Source: Nitrospinota bacterium
Lineage (GTDB): Bacteria > Nitrospinota > Nitrospinia > Nitrospinales > JACRGP01
Assembly (NCBI GenBank): GCA_016207065.1
Contig: JACQQK010000174.1
Location: forward strand, 1-41,703
Length of the DNA: 41,703 bases
Direction of reading: 5' to 3'
Shown: positions 372 to 41,703 of the stretch, in pieces
Layout of the letters: every line of letters starts with the position of its first letter
How positions within the stretch are numbered: the first letter of the stretch is position 1
The notes under the pieces: model-generated
What the model was told of the DNA's origin: nothing
Database searches by the model: none
Seen by the model: the letters and a program-made list of their open reading frames with translations, nothing else
Made by a program: the position numbers and the translations under genes

Positions 372-410
372 AAAGGACCGGCGAAAAGTTTAACGGGGCG
401 CTGAAAAAGT

Positions 411-463
411 GTGGTTGCCCAATTTATTGGGCTCTTGGAGCGCCTGATGAATCAGGCAACTAC
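411..463 (+). repeat. Double-hairpin interspersed repeat, copy 1 (GTGGTTGCCCAATTTATTGGGC...GCCTGATGAATCAGGCAACTAC)
   Basis: Outer inverted arms GTGGTTGCC/GGCAACTAC enclosing two small palindromes; also at 10630-10682 and 29285-29336. Confidence 0.9.
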
Positions 464-480
464 AATTCGTGGAGATACCC

Positions 481-2862
481 TTACGGTTTTTTGCCGTCAT
501 CCCGGCGCCTGCGCCGGAGCGGGAATCGCGTTTCGGCGATCGCGTCAGCGTCATCGCCGTGTTGGATCCAGCGTTCACGCTGGCGGGATTTCCCGGGCGG
601 CAGGGGGTTGCTCTCGATATACCACTTGCCCCTCGGGCTCAATCGGTAACCCTCCGGGAACAGGCGGATCAAGTCCTGTTTAGTCATCTCATTCAAAAGC
701 CGGGTCCGTTCCGCCGGGTTCAGGTCAATCTCCCCCTCGGACCGGGGCTTGCCCGCCACCTGGCTCAGGACTTCCAGTTCCAGCTTGTAAAAATGGTTCG
801 CCTCGTCTTTCAGGGAGGTCAGGAGGATGCGTACGGCCCGTTCGCCGACGGCCCGCAGTTTCGCGGCGTCCGTCCGGGCGCCGCGCAGGTTGATCCCGAT
901 CTTGTTCTCTGTCCCGGAGTTGCGGACGAATATTCCCGCCGGCGAGGACCGGGGCCTGCCTCTCCCGCGCCCCGGTTTCAGGGCCAGGTACAACATGTCC
1001 GGCTCCTCCGGAAACGCCAGCGTCTTCACATCATATCCCAGTTTCCTGCCTTCGTCGAGTAGGGTTCTCTTGACCCGGTTCCAGATTTTGGAGCCTTTGT
1101 GAAAAAGCGGTTTCTTCACATAATAGACGTATAAGGTCTGCTTGAACCCCGGCTTGAAGGGTTTCTCTAAAAAGGCAAAGCGGGCGCGCGGGGATTTTTT
1201 CGCCAACAGGAACTGGGAGGCGGCGAACGTGTTCAACGCGCTTTTCACGCCATTGCCGAAAAAAACGGGCGTCCCGCCGAGCCTGCCGAGAGTGATGTTA
1301 TGTCCCGTCTCCTCGCTCCCCACGGCGAAGGGTATCCGGTCGAGTTCCATTGCCGCCTTGCCCTTTTCCAGTTCCTCGAACCGGCGGACGTCGGAAATGC
1401 CCAACTGCCGCGTCCCGGCGATCAAGGAGGCGATGCGCGAGAGGATCCACTTGTCCCCGACGGGCGAAAGGACGAACTTGAATCCCAGTTCGGCGGCGGC
1501 CTTCCCCGCGTTGAGATCGCTCTCCACGGTGTTGATGTAGGCCGCGCCCCGGTAGCGTTTGGGGTCGCGTTCCATGAGGTATTTCCCCTGCAGGAACGCG
1601 GTCTCGTCGCCGCCGAGGACGATCAGCGCGTCGCGGAACGGGTCGTAGTCCAGGCGGTAAAAACGGTCGCCGTCCGCGTCGAATACGGCGCCGGACACGG
1701 TCCGCTTGCCGGCGAGGATTTCCATTTTGTATTTGCGCCCCAGTTCGAACAGTTTCACGATGGCCTTGTGGCGGCGGAACGGGCCGGAATCGCGCTCGAT
1801 CGCCTTGGCGGAAATCGTCTTGTGCCCTTCCAAATCGGCCACGCCGCTGTACAGGTTGACGTCGCCGTCCAATTTGGCGTTGACCTCGACCACTTCCTCG
1901 AACCCGGCGCGGCGAAATATGTCGGCGGCAATGCCGGACAACGACCCATTGGCCGGGTCGACGATCAGCGTAACGCCGCGGGCAAATCCCCCCACCCCCC
2001 CTTTATCAAAGGGGGGCGATGCGACGATGACGCGGAGCGATCGCCGAAATGCGAATCCCCCCGGCCCCCTTTGCAAGGGGGAGCCGCATCCCGCCTCGGC
2101 GTCAGCGCGAGGCGGCGTTGCCCCCGGGGGGAGCCAGGAGTTTGCCGGGTCCAGCGAGAACCGCGCGAACAAATCGAGCGCGTCGTCCCGGCAGTCCACG
2201 ACCTCCCCCGTTTCCGGCAAGTCCTTCAACGACCGGTAATCGAGGGCCAGGACCGCCCGGGTCAACTCGACGTCGTTTTGCGGCAGGAGCTTCATGCCGC
2301 GATAGGAGTGAAATATCTTGATGCCGTTCTGGTCGCGCGGGTTGTGCGACGCGGTGACCATGAAACCCGCGCGCGCGTTTTTATGCGTCATGTACAAGGG
2401 GACCAGCGGCGTGGGGACGACGCCGAGGCGGAGGACGTTCATCCCCGCCTTGCGCGCGCCGCGCACGACGGCGGAATTGAAAACGCCCCGCGTGTCCCGC
2501 GGGTCCCACCCCACCACGACCAAGCCAGGCTTGGAGCTAACGCCGCCTCCCGCTTGCGCGGAGGCGGATTCCTCGGCGGCCGCGTCAGCGTTGCCGCGGC
2601 GTTGCCCCCGGGCGCTTGCCCGGCCGGCGGCAAGCTGGCGGGAATAAGCGTAGGCGTAGAGTTCCATGAACTCTTCGGTGATGAAGCCCCGCTCCAGGAA
2701 CGCTTCCCGCGGCGAGAGGCCCGCCAGTTCCGGAGCGGACGCGGGTTTCACCTCGCGCCGGATGCCGTCCGTCCCCTGCAGGCGGAACCCGGGCGTCTCT
2801 GATATTTTCGAAGGATTGGGCATGTTCGCGGAAAACGTTTTGGGCGGGATTTTATCACACAA
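481..2862 (-). CDS. Phosphomannomutase/phosphoglucomutase family protein with two internal repeat-derived insertions and a repeat-derived C-terminus
   Basis: 793-aa ORF with mutase motifs (FMVTASHNPRDQNGIK, FDADGDRFYRLD, GSEETGHN, VRNSGTENK). Confidence 0.85.
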   Translation of the reverse strand: MCDKIPPKTFSANMPNPSKISETPGFRLQGTDGIRREVKPASAPELAGLSPREAFLERGFITEEFMELYAYAYSRQLAAGRASARGQRRGNADAAAEESASAQAGGGVSSKPGLVVVGWDPRDTRGVFNSAVVRGARKAGMNVLRLGVVPTPLVPLYMTHKNARAGFMVTASHNPRDQNGIKIFHSYRGMKLLPQNDVELTRAVLALDYRSLKDLPETGEVVDCRDDALDLFARFSLDPANSWLPPGATPPRADAEAGCGSPLQRGPGGFAFRRSLRVIVASPPFDKGGVGGFARGVTLIVDPANGSLSGIAADIFRRAGFEEVVEVNAKLDGDVNLYSGVADLEGHKTISAKAIERDSGPFRRHKAIVKLFELGRKYKMEILAGKRTVSGAVFDADGDRFYRLDYDPFRDALIVLGGDETAFLQGKYLMERDPKRYRGAAYINTVESDLNAGKAAAELGFKFVLSPVGDKWILSRIASLIAGTRQLGISDVRRFEELEKGKAAMELDRIPFAVGSEETGHNITLGRLGGTPVFFGNGVKSALNTFAASQFLLAKKSPRARFAFLEKPFKPGFKQTLYVYYVKKPLFHKGSKIWNRVKRTLLDEGRKLGYDVKTLAFPEEPDMLYLALKPGRGRGRPRSSPAGIFVRNSGTENKIGINLRGARTDAAKLRAVGERAVRILLTSLKDEANHFYKLELEVLSQVAGKPRSEGEIDLNPAERTRLLNEMTKQDLIRLFPEGYRLSPRGKWYIESNPLPPGKSRQRERWIQHGDDADAIAETRFPLRRRRRDDGKKP
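491..589. repeat. Palindromic mosaic element at the 3' end of the mutase ORF
   Basis: GTCATCCCGGCGCCTGCGCCGGAGCGGGAATCGCGTTTCGGCGATCGCGTCAGCGTCATCGCCG...TTGGATCCAGCGTTCACGCTGG; shares modules with 3262-3414 and 39373-39503. Confidence 0.75.
1980..2135. repeat. Palindromic mosaic element inside the mutase CDS (insertion A)
   Basis: AATCCCCCCACCCCCCCTTTATCAAAGGGGGG and GAATCCCCCCGGCCCCCTTTGCAAGGGGG followed by GCCTCGGCGTCAGCGCGAGGCGGCGTTGCCCCCGGGGGG; same modules as intergenic copies. Confidence 0.85.
2539..2632. repeat. Palindromic mosaic element inside the mutase CDS (insertion B)
   Basis: ACGCCGCCTCCCGCTTGCGCGGAGGCGG...GCGTTGCCCCCGGGCGCTTGCCCGGCC; same modules at 3290, 8465, 23161 and 41461. 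Confidence 0.85.
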
Positions 2863-3264: not shown

Positions 3265-3414
3265 CCACTCGCCAGCGTGAACGCTGGATCCAACGCCGCC
3301 TCCCGCTTGCGCGGAGGCGGGATGCGGCCCCCCCTTGCAAAGGGGGCCGGGGGGATTCGCATTTCGGCGACCGCGCCAGCGTCATCGCCGCATTGCCCCC
3401 ACGGCGAGTGGTCA
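3262..3414. repeat. 153-bp MITE-like element with perfect 12-bp terminal inverted repeats
   Basis: TGACCACTCGCC (3262-3273) and GGCGAGTGGTCA (3403-3414); interior contains the CCAGCGTGAACGCTGG, GCCTCCCGCTTGCGCGGAGGC and CCCCCCTTGCAAAGGGGG palindromes. Confidence 0.85.
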
Positions 3415-10616: not shown

Positions 10617-10629
10617 AGGGCTAAAAATT

Positions 10630-10682
10630 GTAGTTGCCTGATTCATCAGGCGCTCCAACCGCCCAATAAATTGGGCAACTAC
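10630..10682 (-). repeat. Double-hairpin interspersed repeat, copy 2 (inverted relative to copies 1 and 3)
   Basis: GTAGTTGCCTGATTCATCAGGCGCTCCAACCGCCCAATAAATTGGGCAACTAC. Confidence 0.92.
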
Positions 10683-10810
10683 AACTTTTTATGGACGATT
10701 GGGTTTATGAAAAAGGCGATTTTTAAAGATGCTCTGAAGATGAATTTTAACTTTCAGGACCTCGCCGGCGAAATTCCGCAAATCGCCGGGGACCCGATGG
10801 ATTAAAAACC

Positions 10811-23138: not shown

Positions 23139-23160
23139 CGGCGTATCGCCGCGGATAGTC

Positions 23161-23230
23161 CCGCCTCGGCGCAAGCGCGAGGCGGCGTTGGCTCCGGGCG
23201 CTTGCCCGGGCCGCCCCTACGGCGAGTAGC
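23161..23230. repeat. Mosaic palindromic element (intergenic)
   Basis: CCGCCTCGGCGCAAGCGCGAGGCGGCGTTGGCTCCGGGCGCTTGCCCGGGCCGCCCCTACGGCGAGTAG. Confidence 0.85.
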
Positions 23231-25909: not shown

Positions 25910-26935
25910 ATGAAAAGAATCGCCTCCATCGACGTGGGTTCCAACACCCTGCGCCTGCTCATCCTGGAAACCGACGGGGCGGGAAACTTCCGCGAACTCG
26001 ACGCCGACCGCGCCATCACCCGGCTCGGGGAAGGGATGGACTCCCACAAGCGGCTTCTCGACCGCCGGATCGACGCGACGCTGGAAGCCCTCGCCCGCTT
26101 CCGGGACAAGTGCCGGGCGTTCGGAGACATGCCGGTCCACGCCGTCGCCACCAGCGCCGTGCGCGAGGCGTCCAACCGGGAGGAGTTTCTCCGCAGGGTG
26201 TACGACAAGACCGGGATAACGCTCGACGTGATCCCCTGGGAGGAGGAGGCGCGCCTGACGCTCGACGGCGTTTTCTGGAAAATCCCCGACACCGGAGACG
26301 TCTCGTTGACGTTCGACATCGGCGGCGGGAGTACCGAGTTCATCCTGTCGAAGGGAAAAAAACTCCTGGCCTCGGCGGGAACGTCGCTAGGGATTGTCCG
26401 TTTGACCGAAAAATTCATCGCCCGCCATCCGGCGGCGACGGAGGAATACCGGGCGCTGGAGGAGTTCGTCCGCCGGGAACTCCAAGCCGTCCGGGAAAAG
26501 CTCGCGGGACCGGCGGCCGCGCCGGGGCGAACTGGCCAAACCCGGATCGCCCTCGACAACGCGCATTCGCCATCCGGGTCAAGCCCATTGGGCCCAGCGG
26601 CACGCTGGGAGCCGCGGCTCCTGATCGGGACCGCCGGTACCGTCACCACGCTGGCGGCGCTGGACAAGAACATCCATCCCTACGACCCGCTCAAAGTCCA
26701 CGGGAGCGTCCTGACTCGGCGCCGCATCCAGGAAATCCTGGACGACCTCAAGGCGAAGACCCTGGAGGAGAGACTGCTCTTGAAACCGTTGGAGCGCGGC
26801 CGGGAGGACGTGATCGTCGCGGGGACCTGCATTGTCCTGGAAACCATGGACGCGTTCGGGAGCGAAACGCTCACGGTGAGCGAATACAGCCTGCGCGAAG
26901 GGATCCTCCTGAAGGCCCTGGCGCGGGAGGGTTAG
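25910..26935 (+). CDS. Ppx/GppA phosphatase, with in-frame repeat-derived insertion
   Basis: 341 aa; IASIDVGSNTLRLLILE, ATSAVREASNREEFL, FDIGGGSTEFILSKG, LLIGTAGTVTTLAALD. Confidence 0.92.
   Translation: MKRIASIDVGSNTLRLLILETDGAGNFRELDADRAITRLGEGMDSHKRLLDRRIDATLEALARFRDKCRAFGDMPVHAVATSAVREASNREEFLRRVYDKTGITLDVIPWEEEARLTLDGVFWKIPDTGDVSLTFDIGGGSTEFILSKGKKLLASAGTSLGIVRLTEKFIARHPAATEEYRALEEFVRRELQAVREKLAGPAAAPGRTGQTRIALDNAHSPSGSSPLGPAARWEPRLLIGTAGTVTTLAALDKNIHPYDPLKVHGSVLTRRRIQEILDDLKAKTLEERLLLKPLERGREDVIVAGTCIVLETMDAFGSETLTVSEYSLREGILLKALAREG
26513..26609 (+). repeat. ~97-bp coding-compatible element, copy in Ppx/GppA CDS
   Basis: GCGGCCGCGCCGGGGCGAACTGGCCAAACCCGGATCGCCCTCGAC...CCCATTGGGCCCAGCGGCACGCTGGG; homologous to 38482-38580 (inverted) and 41096-41195. 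Confidence 0.88.
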
Positions 26936-29265: not shown

Positions 29266-29284
29266 CGACCGGCGCTAAAAAATT

Positions 29285-29336
29285 GTGGTTGCCAATTTAT
29301 TGGGCGTTTGGAGCGCCTGATGAATCAGGCAACTAC
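29285..29336 (+). repeat. Double-hairpin interspersed repeat, copy 3
   Basis: GTGGTTGCCAATTTATTGGGCGTTTGGAGCGCCTGATGAATCAGGCAACTAC. Confidence 0.92.
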
Positions 29337-29646
29337 AATTTTTCGAGATGCCCAAAAGGGTCCCGGAATTTTTTCCTCTTTGGATTTTACTCATGCGATA
29401 ACCGGGTTGACCGCCCAAACCCTGTTTTTTTCATGTAATGCGCCAAAAACGAATCCGCGTAACAACAATATATTCAATGTCGTTTTCTTGGCGATGAGTT
29501 CGCCGTTCGGGCAGGCCGAATTGCCGTCTTGATTTTATTGCGCCATTATATGATCATGTAGTGGTGGTTTTACCGTTTGGTTTTATAACCGTGTCTCCTT
29601 ATTAATCAAGCGCCATCGGCTATAACCGCGGGCGTGGGATGTTGGC

Positions 29647-38151: not shown

Positions 38152-39138
38152 TCACCGGCCCGCCTTGCGCCATCCGGCTCGCGCCGCCTCTTCCTCGCTA
38201 CAGAACCACCGTTCGCCCTGGGATTCGTCGATCTGGGTTTTGCCGTACCATTGCCCGCCGGGGACGTGGTAGATTTTTTCCTTTTTGCGGTTGATGTTCC
38301 CCTTGATCCGGCAATCGTCCTGCCGTTGCCGTTCGGCGCCCTTTTCTTCCTTCCTGTCCGCGACTTTGGGATTGGAATCGGCTTCGGGCTTGACCTCCGC
38401 CGCTTTCTCCTCCGCAACCGCCATGTCCTTTACGGGCTCCGTTTCCAATTTTTCAGGAACAGGAACCGGCGTGGACGGCGGCCGGCGTGACGCTGGACCC
38501 AGCGGGCTCGACTCGGATGGCGAGCGATGACCATCGGGGGCGCTCAAAGTCTGGCCGGTTCGCCCCGGCGCGGGCGGCGGCTCCCTTTGCCAGAGCCCCC
38601 GCCCCTGGATCCGGGCCTCGTCCTCATAACGTTTGAACTCCTTCATATACTTGAAGGGGAAACGGGTGTAGGCGAACCCGTAGCCTTGCTTGATAATCTC
38701 CGCGTTCAGAAAAAAATCGTCCGGCTGACGGTAAACGTAGGCCAGCAGGCGCCCGTATTTGTCGCGCGGCGTAACGTCGTAGTCCATGGCGACGAAGCGG
38801 CCTTCCGCGGCGCGACGGGTGAACTCGGACGCCTCCTTGCCGAAATACTGCACGGGCTTCGTGGGGTGTTTTGTCTCGGGGGTGTCGACGCCGAGCAGTC
38901 TCACCTTCTCCCCGTCGCTCAACCGCAAGGTGTCCCCGTCGATGACGCGTTTGACGAAAAATTGCCCGCCGTCTCGCCTGGCGGACGAAGCTTCCGAGCG
39001 GCCCATGGCATAGTCCGTCCGGTAACCCTTCCCCCGTCCGGTTGACGGACGGGCGGGTTCGCCCTTGCTTTCGAGGGGAACGCCGCTCAAGGCCAACGTT
39101 AAAATCGCCAGGGCCACGAGGACTGAAAGCAGTCTCAC
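38152..39138 (-). CDS. Thermonuclease-family (SNase) secreted nuclease with repeat-derived linker
   Basis: GTG start at 39138 (VRLLSVLVALAILTLALSG signal); VKRVIDGDTLRLSDGEKVRLLGVDTPETKHP; C-terminal tail after an in-frame repeat. Confidence 0.88.
   Translation of the reverse strand: MRLLSVLVALAILTLALSGVPLESKGEPARPSTGRGKGYRTDYAMGRSEASSARRDGGQFFVKRVIDGDTLRLSDGEKVRLLGVDTPETKHPTKPVQYFGKEASEFTRRAAEGRFVAMDYDVTPRDKYGRLLAYVYRQPDDFFLNAEIIKQGYGFAYTRFPFKYMKEFKRYEDEARIQGRGLWQREPPPAPGRTGQTLSAPDGHRSPSESSPLGPASRRPPSTPVPVPEKLETEPVKDMAVAEEKAAEVKPEADSNPKVADRKEEKGAERQRQDDCRIKGNINRKKEKIYHVPGGQWYGKTQIDESQGERWFCSEEEAARAGWRKAGR
38482..38580 (-). repeat. ~97-bp coding-compatible element, copy in SNase CDS
   Basis: Reverse strand GCCGGGGCGAACCGGCCAGACTTTGAGCGCC...TCGCCATCCGAGTCGAGCCCGCTGGGTCCAGCGTCACGCC. 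Confidence 0.88.
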
Positions 39139-39356
39139 GGTCTTATGGCGCTCCCGACGACGATGCCGCTGGCAATGACGACCGACGCGAGGACGATAGC
39201 CATGGGGACGCTTCCCTCCTTGATCAGCGCCCATTCGTCCACGCCCTTGTTGAGCAAGTTGAAGATGTAAAGCGAGATAAACAGCCCGGCGCCCATGCTT
39301 GCCGAGCCGACGATGGCCCAGCCAAAAGTGATCAAATACGCGGTGGCAATTTCCAT
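39135..39356 (-). CDS. Small membrane protein, DUF350-like
   Basis: MEIATAYLITFGWAIVGSASMGAGLFISLYIFNLLNKGVDEWALIKEGSVPMAIVLASVVIASGIVVGSAIRP; ORF-track start at 39479 is repeat-derived. Confidence 0.65.
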   Translation of the reverse strand: MEIATAYLITFGWAIVGSASMGAGLFISLYIFNLLNKGVDEWALIKEGSVPMAIVLASVVIASGIVVGSAIRP

Positions 39357-39372: not shown

Positions 39373-39503
39373 ATGCGGCGTAGCGCCGCGTGGCTTCCGG
39401 GCGTTTGCCCGTTAGTGAATCCGGTGTCGCGCCGGCCGCCTCGGCGTTGGCCTGAGGCGGCGTTGGATCCAGCGTTCACGCTGGCCGGGGGCGTCCCCGG
39501 CTA
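39373..39503. repeat. Mosaic palindromic element (intergenic)
   Basis: GCGGCGTAGCGCCGCGTGGCTTCCGGGCGTTTGCCCG...GCCTCGGCGTTGGCCTGAGGCGGCGTTGGATCCAGCGTTCACGCTGGCCGG. Confidence 0.85.
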
Positions 39504-40583: not shown

Positions 40584-40788
40584 GATGAGGTTGGGGGTCC
40601 GGAGAAACGGCCGCCCCGGTTTCCGGATAGCGGTTAGATTATACTTTTTCCGGCGGTTTTGGTAAACTGTGGGTATCCGCGCGAGGTTTTTTATTAAGAT
40701 CCTTACAACCCAAAATCATGAATGATCCTTGGCTTGGCCGTTCCCGGAGCCTTATAAAATACCAACCCCAATAATAATGGAGAAGAAC

Positions 40789-41091
40789 ATGAGACGCGCC
40801 CTACTTTCCCTCGTTGCAGTTCTAGCGTTTTCCCTCGCGGTCGGATGTGGCTCGGTCGGAAAAAATTTCGATAGCGGCAAGGTCCAAAACATAAAGAACC
40901 ATTCCACCACGAAAAACGAGATATTGGATTGGTTCGGCCTGCCTTTCAAGGAAGGCATGGAAAACGGAAGCGCGATGTGGACGTATCAGTTCGACAAATA
41001 CGTCGCCGGGAGCGCCAAGTCCAAGGACCTGGTGATCTTGTTCGACAACAACAACGTCGTCAAGGCTTACCGCTACACCTCCAACGAGTAA
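40789..41091 (+). CDS. Small lipoprotein, SmpA/OmlA (BamE)-like
   Basis: MRRALLSLVAVLAFSLAVGCGSVGKNFDSGKVQNIKNHSTTKNEILDWFGLPFKEGMENGSAMWTYQF. Confidence 0.75.
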   Translation: MRRALLSLVAVLAFSLAVGCGSVGKNFDSGKVQNIKNHSTTKNEILDWFGLPFKEGMENGSAMWTYQFDKYVAGSAKSKDLVILFDNNNVVKAYRYTSNE

Positions 41092-41095
41092 ACCG

Positions 41096-41195
41096 GCGGC
41101 CGCGCCGGAGCGGACGGGCCATGCTTGGATTGCCCTCGACGATGCCCGTTTGCCATCGGAGCCGAGCCCATTGGATCCAGCGGCATGCTGGCCGG
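41096..41195 (+). repeat. ~97-bp element, intergenic copy
   Basis: GGCGGCCGCGCCGGAGCGGACGGGCCATGCTTGGATTGCCCTCGACGATGCCCG...CCCATTGGATCCAGCGGCATGCTGGCC. Confidence 0.88.
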
Positions 41196-41237: not shown

Positions 41238-41703
41238 ATGAAAAAGGTCCGTTTGTTTGTTTACGATTTCGACGGGACGCTGGTGGATTCCAAGCTGGAC
41301 ATCGCCGACTCCGTCAATTGCGCCCTCAGGGAGCTTGGCTTCCGCGAACTGCCTCGGGAAACTATTTTCGGTTACATCGGCGACGGCGTGGAAGCCCTGA
41401 TGTCGCGCGCGCTGTCCGGCGTGACGCCGGCCGGGCCAACGCCCGCCAGCGTGCCGCTGGATCCAACGCCGCCTCCCGCTTGCGCGGAGGCAGAGACCGG
41501 GTTCCGGCGCTCGCGAAGCGCCATCGCCGCGTGGCCCCCGGGCGTTTGCCTGGACAGCGGACCGCTGGCGGGCGTTGGCCCGGCGGTCGAGGCGTTCAAG
41601 AGACATTATGGCGTCCGCTATTTGGACCAAACCCGGTTTTACCCCCATTGCCGCGAAACCATCGATTCTTTTTCCGACAAAAAACACGCCATTTTTTCCA
41701 ACA
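41238..41703 (+). CDS. HAD-superfamily phosphoglycolate phosphatase-like protein (truncated by window edge) with ~155-bp in-frame element
   Basis: Own translation: MKKVRLFVYDFDGTLVDSKLDIADSVNCALRELGF...FYPHCRETIDSFSDKKHAIFSN, no stop; DxDGTLVDS motif. Not in the ORF track because it is open at the edge. Confidence 0.88.
   Translation, partial: MKKVRLFVYDFDGTLVDSKLDIADSVNCALRELGFRELPRETIFGYIGDGVEALMSRALSGVTPAGPTPASVPLDPTPPPACAEAETGFRRSRSAIAAWPPGVCLDSGPLAGVGPAVEAFKRHYGVRYLDQTRFYPHCRETIDSFSDKKHAIFSN
41430..41584. repeat. 155-bp MITE-like element with perfect 22-bp terminal inverted repeats, inside CDS
   Basis: GCCGGGCCAACGCCCGCCAGCG (41430-41451) and its exact reverse complement CGCTGGCGGGCGTTGGCCCGGC (41563-41584). 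Confidence 0.9.

What the first reader, a model, noticed from the sequence alone, without database searches (positions are those of the whole stretch)
26513..26609. A ~97-bp mobile-like element occurs three times and is read in the same frame inside two unrelated proteins
Seen: the Ppx/GppA insertion reads APGRTGQTRIALDNAHSPSGSSPLGPAARW. The SNase insertion (38482-38580, minus) reads APGRTGQTLSAPDGHRSPSESSPLGPASR. An intergenic copy (41096-41195) has the same frame open: APERTGHAWIALDDARLPSEPSPLDPAACW. By eye, 19 of 26 residues match between the two genic copies from PGRTGQT to SSPLGPA. The Ppx copy falls between the helical region and the conserved LLIGTAGT motif. Inference: the element keeps a translatable frame and inserts into linkers or loops, as Rickettsia palindromic elements do. 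It could be an undescribed coding-compatible element family.
Basis: partly seen in the sequence, partly recalled or inferred. Interest (0 to 1): 0.85.

Follow-up and report, generated by a model that had tools for sequence, protein, structure and literature searches.

The report
Palindrome-ended repeat inserted in bacterial genes
A 99-letter repeated DNA element has spread to more than a hundred places in each of two related groundwater bacteria (Nitrospinota) and, in about thirty places, sits inside a working gene without breaking it, adding a floppy 33-amino-acid loop to the protein, much as 'Rickettsia palindromic elements' do in an unrelated group of bacteria.

Summary
Elsewhere in the class there are only weak or isolated matches. 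36 of 202 inspected copies lie in open frames at 29 independent gene sites (Ppx, SNase, NifU, DnaX, Lnt, prephenate dehydrogenase and others). Outgroup genes lack the insert. The sister species gives exact 99-nt empty sites, a tandem duplication, in-frame partial deletions and an inverted remnant at orthologous positions. AlphaFold puts the Ppx insert in a disordered loop. pN/pS is 0.74 in the element against 0.21 in flanking codons, so it looks tolerated, not selected. Best reading: a non-autonomous, hairpin-ended selfish repeat, compatible with coding, working like RPEs but not an RPE. No mobilising enzyme was found. It is a new family of a known kind, in a new phylum, with unusually clear evolutionary intermediates.

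The parts
26510..26608 (+). 99-nt element copy inside the Ppx/GppA gene, read as residues ~201-233 (..PAAAPGRTGQTRIALDNAHSPSGSSPLGPAARW..), frame '+ phase 0'
   Evidence: missing from relatives; disordered loop
26510..26525 (+). 5' terminal hairpin CCGGCG-GCCG-CGCCGG
26594..26608 (+). 3' terminal hairpin CCAGCG-GCA-CGCTGG
25910..26935 (+). host gene: Ppx/GppA exopolyphosphatase family (PF02541 split in two by the insert)
38482..38580 (-). element copy in the SNase-domain gene, immediately after the SNase domain (residues ~218-251), frame '+ phase 0'
38152..39234 (-). host gene: staphylococcal-nuclease-like protein with a separate C-terminal segment (residues 307-358)
41093..41191 (+). intergenic element copy, starting 1 nt after the stop codon of ORF 40729-41091

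Best explanation
The segment is a copy of a non-autonomous, selfish, palindrome-ended repeat (unit exactly 99 nt, a 6-bp hairpin at each end) that multiplies in one Nitrospinota genus. Shown: it inserts as a precise 99-nt (in one case 96-nt) unit, and occurs in intergenic DNA, inside other palindromic repeats, and in genes on either strand. Shown: because 99 is divisible by three and several of its six frames lack stops, many genic insertions add about 33 hydrophilic residues and leave the gene readable. Shown: genic copies are found only in frames without stops, drift with relaxed constraint and decay by in-frame deletion, tandem duplication or rearrangement. Inferred: the insert is translated into a tolerated surface loop or linker; insertions that broke frames or folded cores were removed by selection; the conserved ends are the sites recognised by an unidentified enzyme acting in trans.
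For: Copy number 125 and at least 150 in two congeners. Of 78 genomes of the class searched at E<=1e-6, the only others with matches had three, two, one and one. 36 of 202 copies lie in spanning, coding-like ORFs at 29 independent sites, most in proteins with recognised Pfam domains and usually between or beside them. Outgroup homologs lack the insert in Ppx and in M20, NifU, DsbH-like, RluA, prephenate dehydrogenase, Dus, histidine kinase, ParB and TPR genes. The sister genome has precise empty sites for NifU (99 nt, flanks 98% identical), M20 (99 nt), Slp (96 nt) and the Wzy gene. In-frame remnants occur in DnaX and RluA, an inverted shortened remnant in Lnt, and a 33-codon tandem duplication in the DsbH-like gene. 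Length is a multiple of three in 30/36 genic against 86/166 other copies (p=6.5e-4). Of 18 copies with strong coding signal on both sides, 17 are in frame; the exception lies at the very C terminus of ParA, where it is in frame with ParA. pN/pS is 0.74 in the element, 0.21 in flanks. The Ppx insert has pLDDT about 30 between a helix and a strand. Both terminal hairpins keep pairing better than every shuffle. More distant matches in other Nitrospinota keep the ends but not the middle.
Against: No transposase is linked to it: no Y1/HUH (PF01797) match in this genome and one weak match in the sister; only that family was searched. No clear target-site duplication or long terminal inverted repeats. 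Translation is inferred; there are no proteomic data. Both genomes are incomplete MAGs (80% and 71%). No empty site is available for the SNase copy, because close relatives lack the gene. The pN/pS value rests on 15 substitutions.
Confidence: 0.9

Rival explanations
1. The segment is ancestral protein sequence, a shared domain or linker motif of unrelated proteins, and the DNA similarity is a by-product.
For: The Ppx and SNase copies share a frame and 19 of 26 residues.
Against: Ppx homologs throughout the order lack it, as do outgroup homologs of nine other genes. It is read on both strands and in five frames, giving unrelated peptides, and it is mostly outside coding frames.
Confidence: 0.01
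2. The element has been co-opted: its peptide in the preferred frames (PGRTGQTRIALDDAHSPSESSPLGPAARW or its antisense partner) has a selected function in the host proteins.
For: Two frames make up 20 of 29 independent sites; six insertions are shared by both species and kept open.
Against: Frame usage fits the stop filter (p=0.14). pN/pS is 0.74 inside against 0.21 outside. The orthologous DnaX and RluA copies are partly deleted in the sister species.
Confidence: 0.04
3. The insert is not translated as part of the protein but is removed at RNA level or bypassed by the ribosome, which is why genes tolerate it.
For: Strong terminal hairpins; tolerated in apparently important genes such as dnaX, lnt and nifU-like.
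Against: The used frame is always free of stops and the length is held to multiples of three, which neither removal nor bypass would require. Remnants decay in frame.
Confidence: 0.04
4. Assembly or binning artefact: repeats wrongly joined into genes.
For: Both genomes are fragmented MAGs and some sister-genome contigs end inside or next to copies, as in Ppx.
Against: Six genic insertions occur at the same site in two separate genomes; clean empty sites with 94-98% identical flanks; most copies are contig-internal.
Confidence: 0.01

Closest known systems
Rickettsia / Wolbachia palindromic elements (RPE, WPE)
   Same: Small (105-146 bp) repeats found both between genes and in frame inside conserved genes; encoded peptide on solvent-exposed surface; no known transposase (PMC2229807, PMC3767692, PMC10969869).
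   Different: Different phylum, and no match in the window to any Rfam family at gathering threshold. Exactly 99 nt. Two separate terminal hairpins instead of one long stem-loop. Five of six frames used. Empty, duplicated and in-frame-deleted states seen between sister species, whereas RPE sites are reported as conserved among orthologs (PMC3767692).
ERIC/RU-1, RU-2, RU-3 and the 107-bp Correia (NEMIS) elements
   Same: About 100-170 bp, mainly intergenic, sometimes fused in frame to genes, with open frames (PMC2759123, PMC2229807).
   Different: Those have terminal inverted repeats, several with TA target duplication (PMC2229807); neither was found here. Sequences were not compared directly.
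GTAG/CGTC REPs and REPINs (RAYT-associated)
   Same: Short GC-rich hairpins in many copies, some intragenic; CGTC REPs lack a dedicated transposase (PMC3733652).
   Different: REPs are 20-40 bp units. Here the unit is a 99-nt body with a hairpin at each end, and no RAYT-type transposase was found in this genome.
IS200/IS605-derived hairpin-ended miniature elements
   Same: Subterminal hairpins and no target duplication (general knowledge).
   Different: No Y1 transposase in this genome, one weak match in the sister; target tetranucleotide not demonstrated.

Membership tests
Coding-compatible small mobile repeats (the general kind) | Many dispersed copies both between genes and in frame inside unrelated genes | tested here: met
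Coding-compatible small mobile repeats (the general kind) | Insert absent from homologous genes of relatives | tested here: met
Rickettsia palindromic elements | Found in Rickettsiales; sequence family RPE-1 to RPE-10 | tested here: not met
   Host is Nitrospinota; no Rfam match in the window at gathering threshold. RPE sequences themselves were not compared
Rickettsia palindromic elements | Whole element folds as one long stem-loop | tested here: not met
   Two short terminal hairpins and a weakly folding middle, z about -1.1 to -1.9
Rickettsia palindromic elements | Insert lies in loops or at the surface | tested here: met
   Ppx model, pLDDT about 30 at residues 201-231; the other genes only by Pfam boundaries
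Rickettsia palindromic elements | Insert translated and protein still active | not testable with these tools
   Needs proteomics and enzyme assays
TIR-type MITE | Terminal inverted repeats and target-site duplication | tested here: not met
   Ends share only CC..GG; flanking direct matches arise mainly from tandem or nested contexts; NifU site shows a bare 99-nt insertion
REP/REPIN with RAYT | Associated Y1 tyrosine transposase | tested here: not met
   0 matches in G000, one weak in G001; genomes 80% and 71% complete
IS200/IS605-type miniature element | Hairpin ends and insertion 3' of a fixed tetranucleotide without duplication | tested here: inconclusive
   Hairpins met. Targets are GC-rich and often resemble CTGG/CCGG, but only four empty sites are available

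The most novel reading that the evidence does not exclude
The family is one branch of a Nitrospinota-wide set of modular elements that share end modules (5' CCGG hairpin; 3' GCCCATTGGGTCCAGCGNCACGCTGG) but have different interiors, moved in trans by an undescribed enzyme that recognises the ends. In this genus the interior has been shaped to a stop-poor 33-codon length, so genes serve as habitat.
Probability: 0.3. Interest if true: 0.8.

Novelty: new member of a known kind. Interest (0 to 1): 0.62.

Why it matters
In-frame insertion of selfish repeats was described in Rickettsia and Wolbachia, with scattered cases elsewhere. This is a high-copy family in a distant phylum, in a groundwater lineage with a 3-Mb genome. 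Two sister species show empty, filled, duplicated, shortened and inverted states at gene sites they share, so the rate and route by which a selfish element becomes, or fails to become, protein sequence can be measured directly. It also warns annotators: about 33 residues of some thirty proteins in this genus, including widely conserved ones, are repeat-derived.

Tried and rejected
Rfam scan of the window: no match. Plasmid and phage collections: no match to the element. Target-site duplication: slight excess of flanking matches, explained mainly by tandem and nested contexts, so rejected. One-frame hypothesis: rejected. The apparent frame-breaking copy at C185:12800 turned out to be an in-frame C-terminal extension of ParA overlapping the ParB start. 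Weak matches in other genera are mostly end-module similarity, not full copies. The joined-flank search worked for some loci; others could not be scored because their flanks are themselves repeats. Ogata et al. 2002 was not held, so RPE frame usage could not be compared.

Full report
The observation. The unit is 99 nt, canonically CCGG...CGCTGG. BLAST of the Ppx copy finds 44 places in the genome, from 111 candidates of which 40 were scored.

Where it lives. The window is contig C133 of a 2.96-Mb, about 80% complete MAG. Ppx relatives by name are all Nitrospinota; contig lengths show that the sister genome G001 is isolate NC_groundwater_1754_Pr3. Searching 78 genomes of the class at E<=1e-6, only these two congeners have the family in numbers. 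Four other genomes have one to three matches; one of these is a single strong copy in a distant family, G062.

Anatomy. Each end is a 6-bp hairpin: 5' CCGGGG-AACG-CCCCGG, also CCGGCG..CGCCGG and CCGGGC..GCCCGG; 3' CCAGCG-NCA-CGCTGG, also CCAACG..CGTTGG and CCGGCG..CGCCGG. These are compensatory changes; pairing exceeds all 500 shuffles for both hairpins, with the caution that related copies inflate such counts. The middle has no strong fold. About half of the non-genic copies sit inside other palindromic repeats: 44 between CCCTCCCTTGA and GGAGGGGGC (7 more with one half of it), 24 between GTCATCGCGAG and GTGGCGATCC, 6 in a CCGCCTC/GAGGCGG palindrome. Only one genic copy does. Host palindromes without the element also occur.

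Genes. 202 copies with flanks were scanned, 95 here and 107 in the sister. 36 lie in stop-free ORFs with coding-like codon usage on both sides, at 29 independent sites once orthologs and one tandem pair are merged; a ParA C-terminal case makes 30. Pfam places them in Ppx, SNase, a ParB-like protein, Wzy, DsbH-like, Dus, prephenate dehydrogenase (between its two domains), GT9, RluA, NifU-like (between domains), DnaX, Lnt (between domains), M20 peptidase, Slp, sensor kinases and TPR proteins.

Frames. In the consensus, + phase 0 (the Ppx/SNase frame), + phase 1 and - phase 1 are open; the other three have one stop each. Independent genic sites use +0 ten times, -1 ten, -2 six, +2 two, -0 once and +1 never. 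Expectation from how often each frame is open in non-genic copies is 7.7, 6.4, 6.2, 1.9, 2.3 and 4.6; overall p=0.14, with +1 lower than expected (p=0.007). Length is under the same filter: 30/36 genic copies are a multiple of three, against 86/166 others (p=6.5e-4).

Insertion, not ancestry. Ppx homologs in the order align through residue ~202 and resume at ~233; three named homologs show a 32-residue gap there. A chimeric query of 15 genes shows flanks that adjoin without the insert in one or both outgroup genomes G002 and G003 for M20, NifU, DsbH-like, RluA, PDH, Dus, histidine kinase, ParB and TPR genes. Between sister species, NifU, M20 and Slp are filled in G001 and empty in G000; Wzy is the reverse. 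In NifU the difference is a bare 99 nt in otherwise 98% identical DNA.

Decay. At orthologous sites DnaX (in G000) and RluA (in G001) keep only part of the element and stay in frame; Lnt in G000 keeps a shortened, inverted piece. The DsbH-like gene has one copy in G001 and two head-to-tail copies (33 codons each) in G000. Between orthologous genic copies pN/pS is 0.74 in the element and 0.21 in adjacent codons (only 15 substitutions in the element). The peptide is tolerated, not conserved.

Structure. AlphaFold2 on Ppx (4-sequence alignment, mean pLDDT 80) gives pLDDT about 30 for residues 201-231, an unstructured excursion between helix 177-199 and strand 237-240. Solved homologs 2j4r and 1t6c align on both sides with only a few residues between.

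Mechanism. Mobility is shown by presence/absence between sisters. How it moves is not known. No Y1 transposase was found in this genome and only one weak match in the sister; no target duplication is evident. Targets at empty sites are GC-rich and often resemble the element's own ends. Distant matches in other Nitrospinota genera keep the 3' module GCCCATTGGGTCCAGCGNCACGCTGG, and in some the 5' hairpin, while the middle differs. That is what one expects if the ends are the recognised parts, but this is inference.

Comparison. It works like RPEs (PMC2229807, PMC3767692, PMC10969869) and like intragenic ERIC/RU elements (PMC2759123) and intragenic REPs (PMC3733652), but it fails tested defining features of each (host group and long stem-loop for RPEs; terminal inverted repeats and target duplication for TIR-type MITEs; associated transposase for RAYT-type REPs). 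No paper found describes it. I therefore call it a new member of a known kind.

Noticed in passing
window 2034-2120 and 2529-2642, inside ORF 481-2862 (-): Other palindromic repeat families also lie in frame inside a gene: the phosphohexomutase has a CCCCCTTTGCAAGGGGG/CCGCCTC composite between domains I and II (aa ~247-276) and another repeat before aa 109.
   Followed up: partly
window 404-480, 10623-10699, 29277-29353: A 77-nt AT-richer inverted-repeat family (TTGTAGTTGCCTGATTCATCAGGCGCTCCAA...), copies up to 98% complementary, between genes; possibly another mobile palindrome or terminator-like element.
   Followed up: no
window 3282-3318, 23159-23198, 39434-39473, 41455-41491: CCGCCTCxCGCxxGCGGAGGCGG palindrome family, often joined to CCAGCGTTCACGCTGG and CCGGGCGCTTGCCCGG hairpins; this genome has several interlocking palindrome families.
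   Followed up: no
L073 (G000:C74:19501-19603) and sister contig G001:C135 (L280): A histidine kinase gene has the 99-nt element in G000 and a longer composite of several other palindromic repeats at the same site in the sister, with the ORF still open.
   Followed up: partly
L253 (G000:C140) vs L220 (G001:C78): Apolipoprotein N-acyltransferase: element in G001, shortened copy in inverted orientation at the same site in G000, suggesting inversion or gene conversion between hairpins.
   Followed up: partly
L119 1201-1303 (G000:C185:12800): Element at the very C terminus of ParA, overlapping the start of parB; a separate ParB-like gene (C129) also carries a copy.
   Followed up: yes
L349 (G062:C217:1935-2038): One 98-bit copy, nested in the CCCTCCC host palindrome, in a MAG of another family; horizontal transfer or bin contamination.
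   Followed up: partly
window 38152-39234 (-): SNase-domain protein whose C-terminal segment (307-358) matches other, mostly SNase-less matches in relatives, so it looks like a domain fusion.
   Followed up: no
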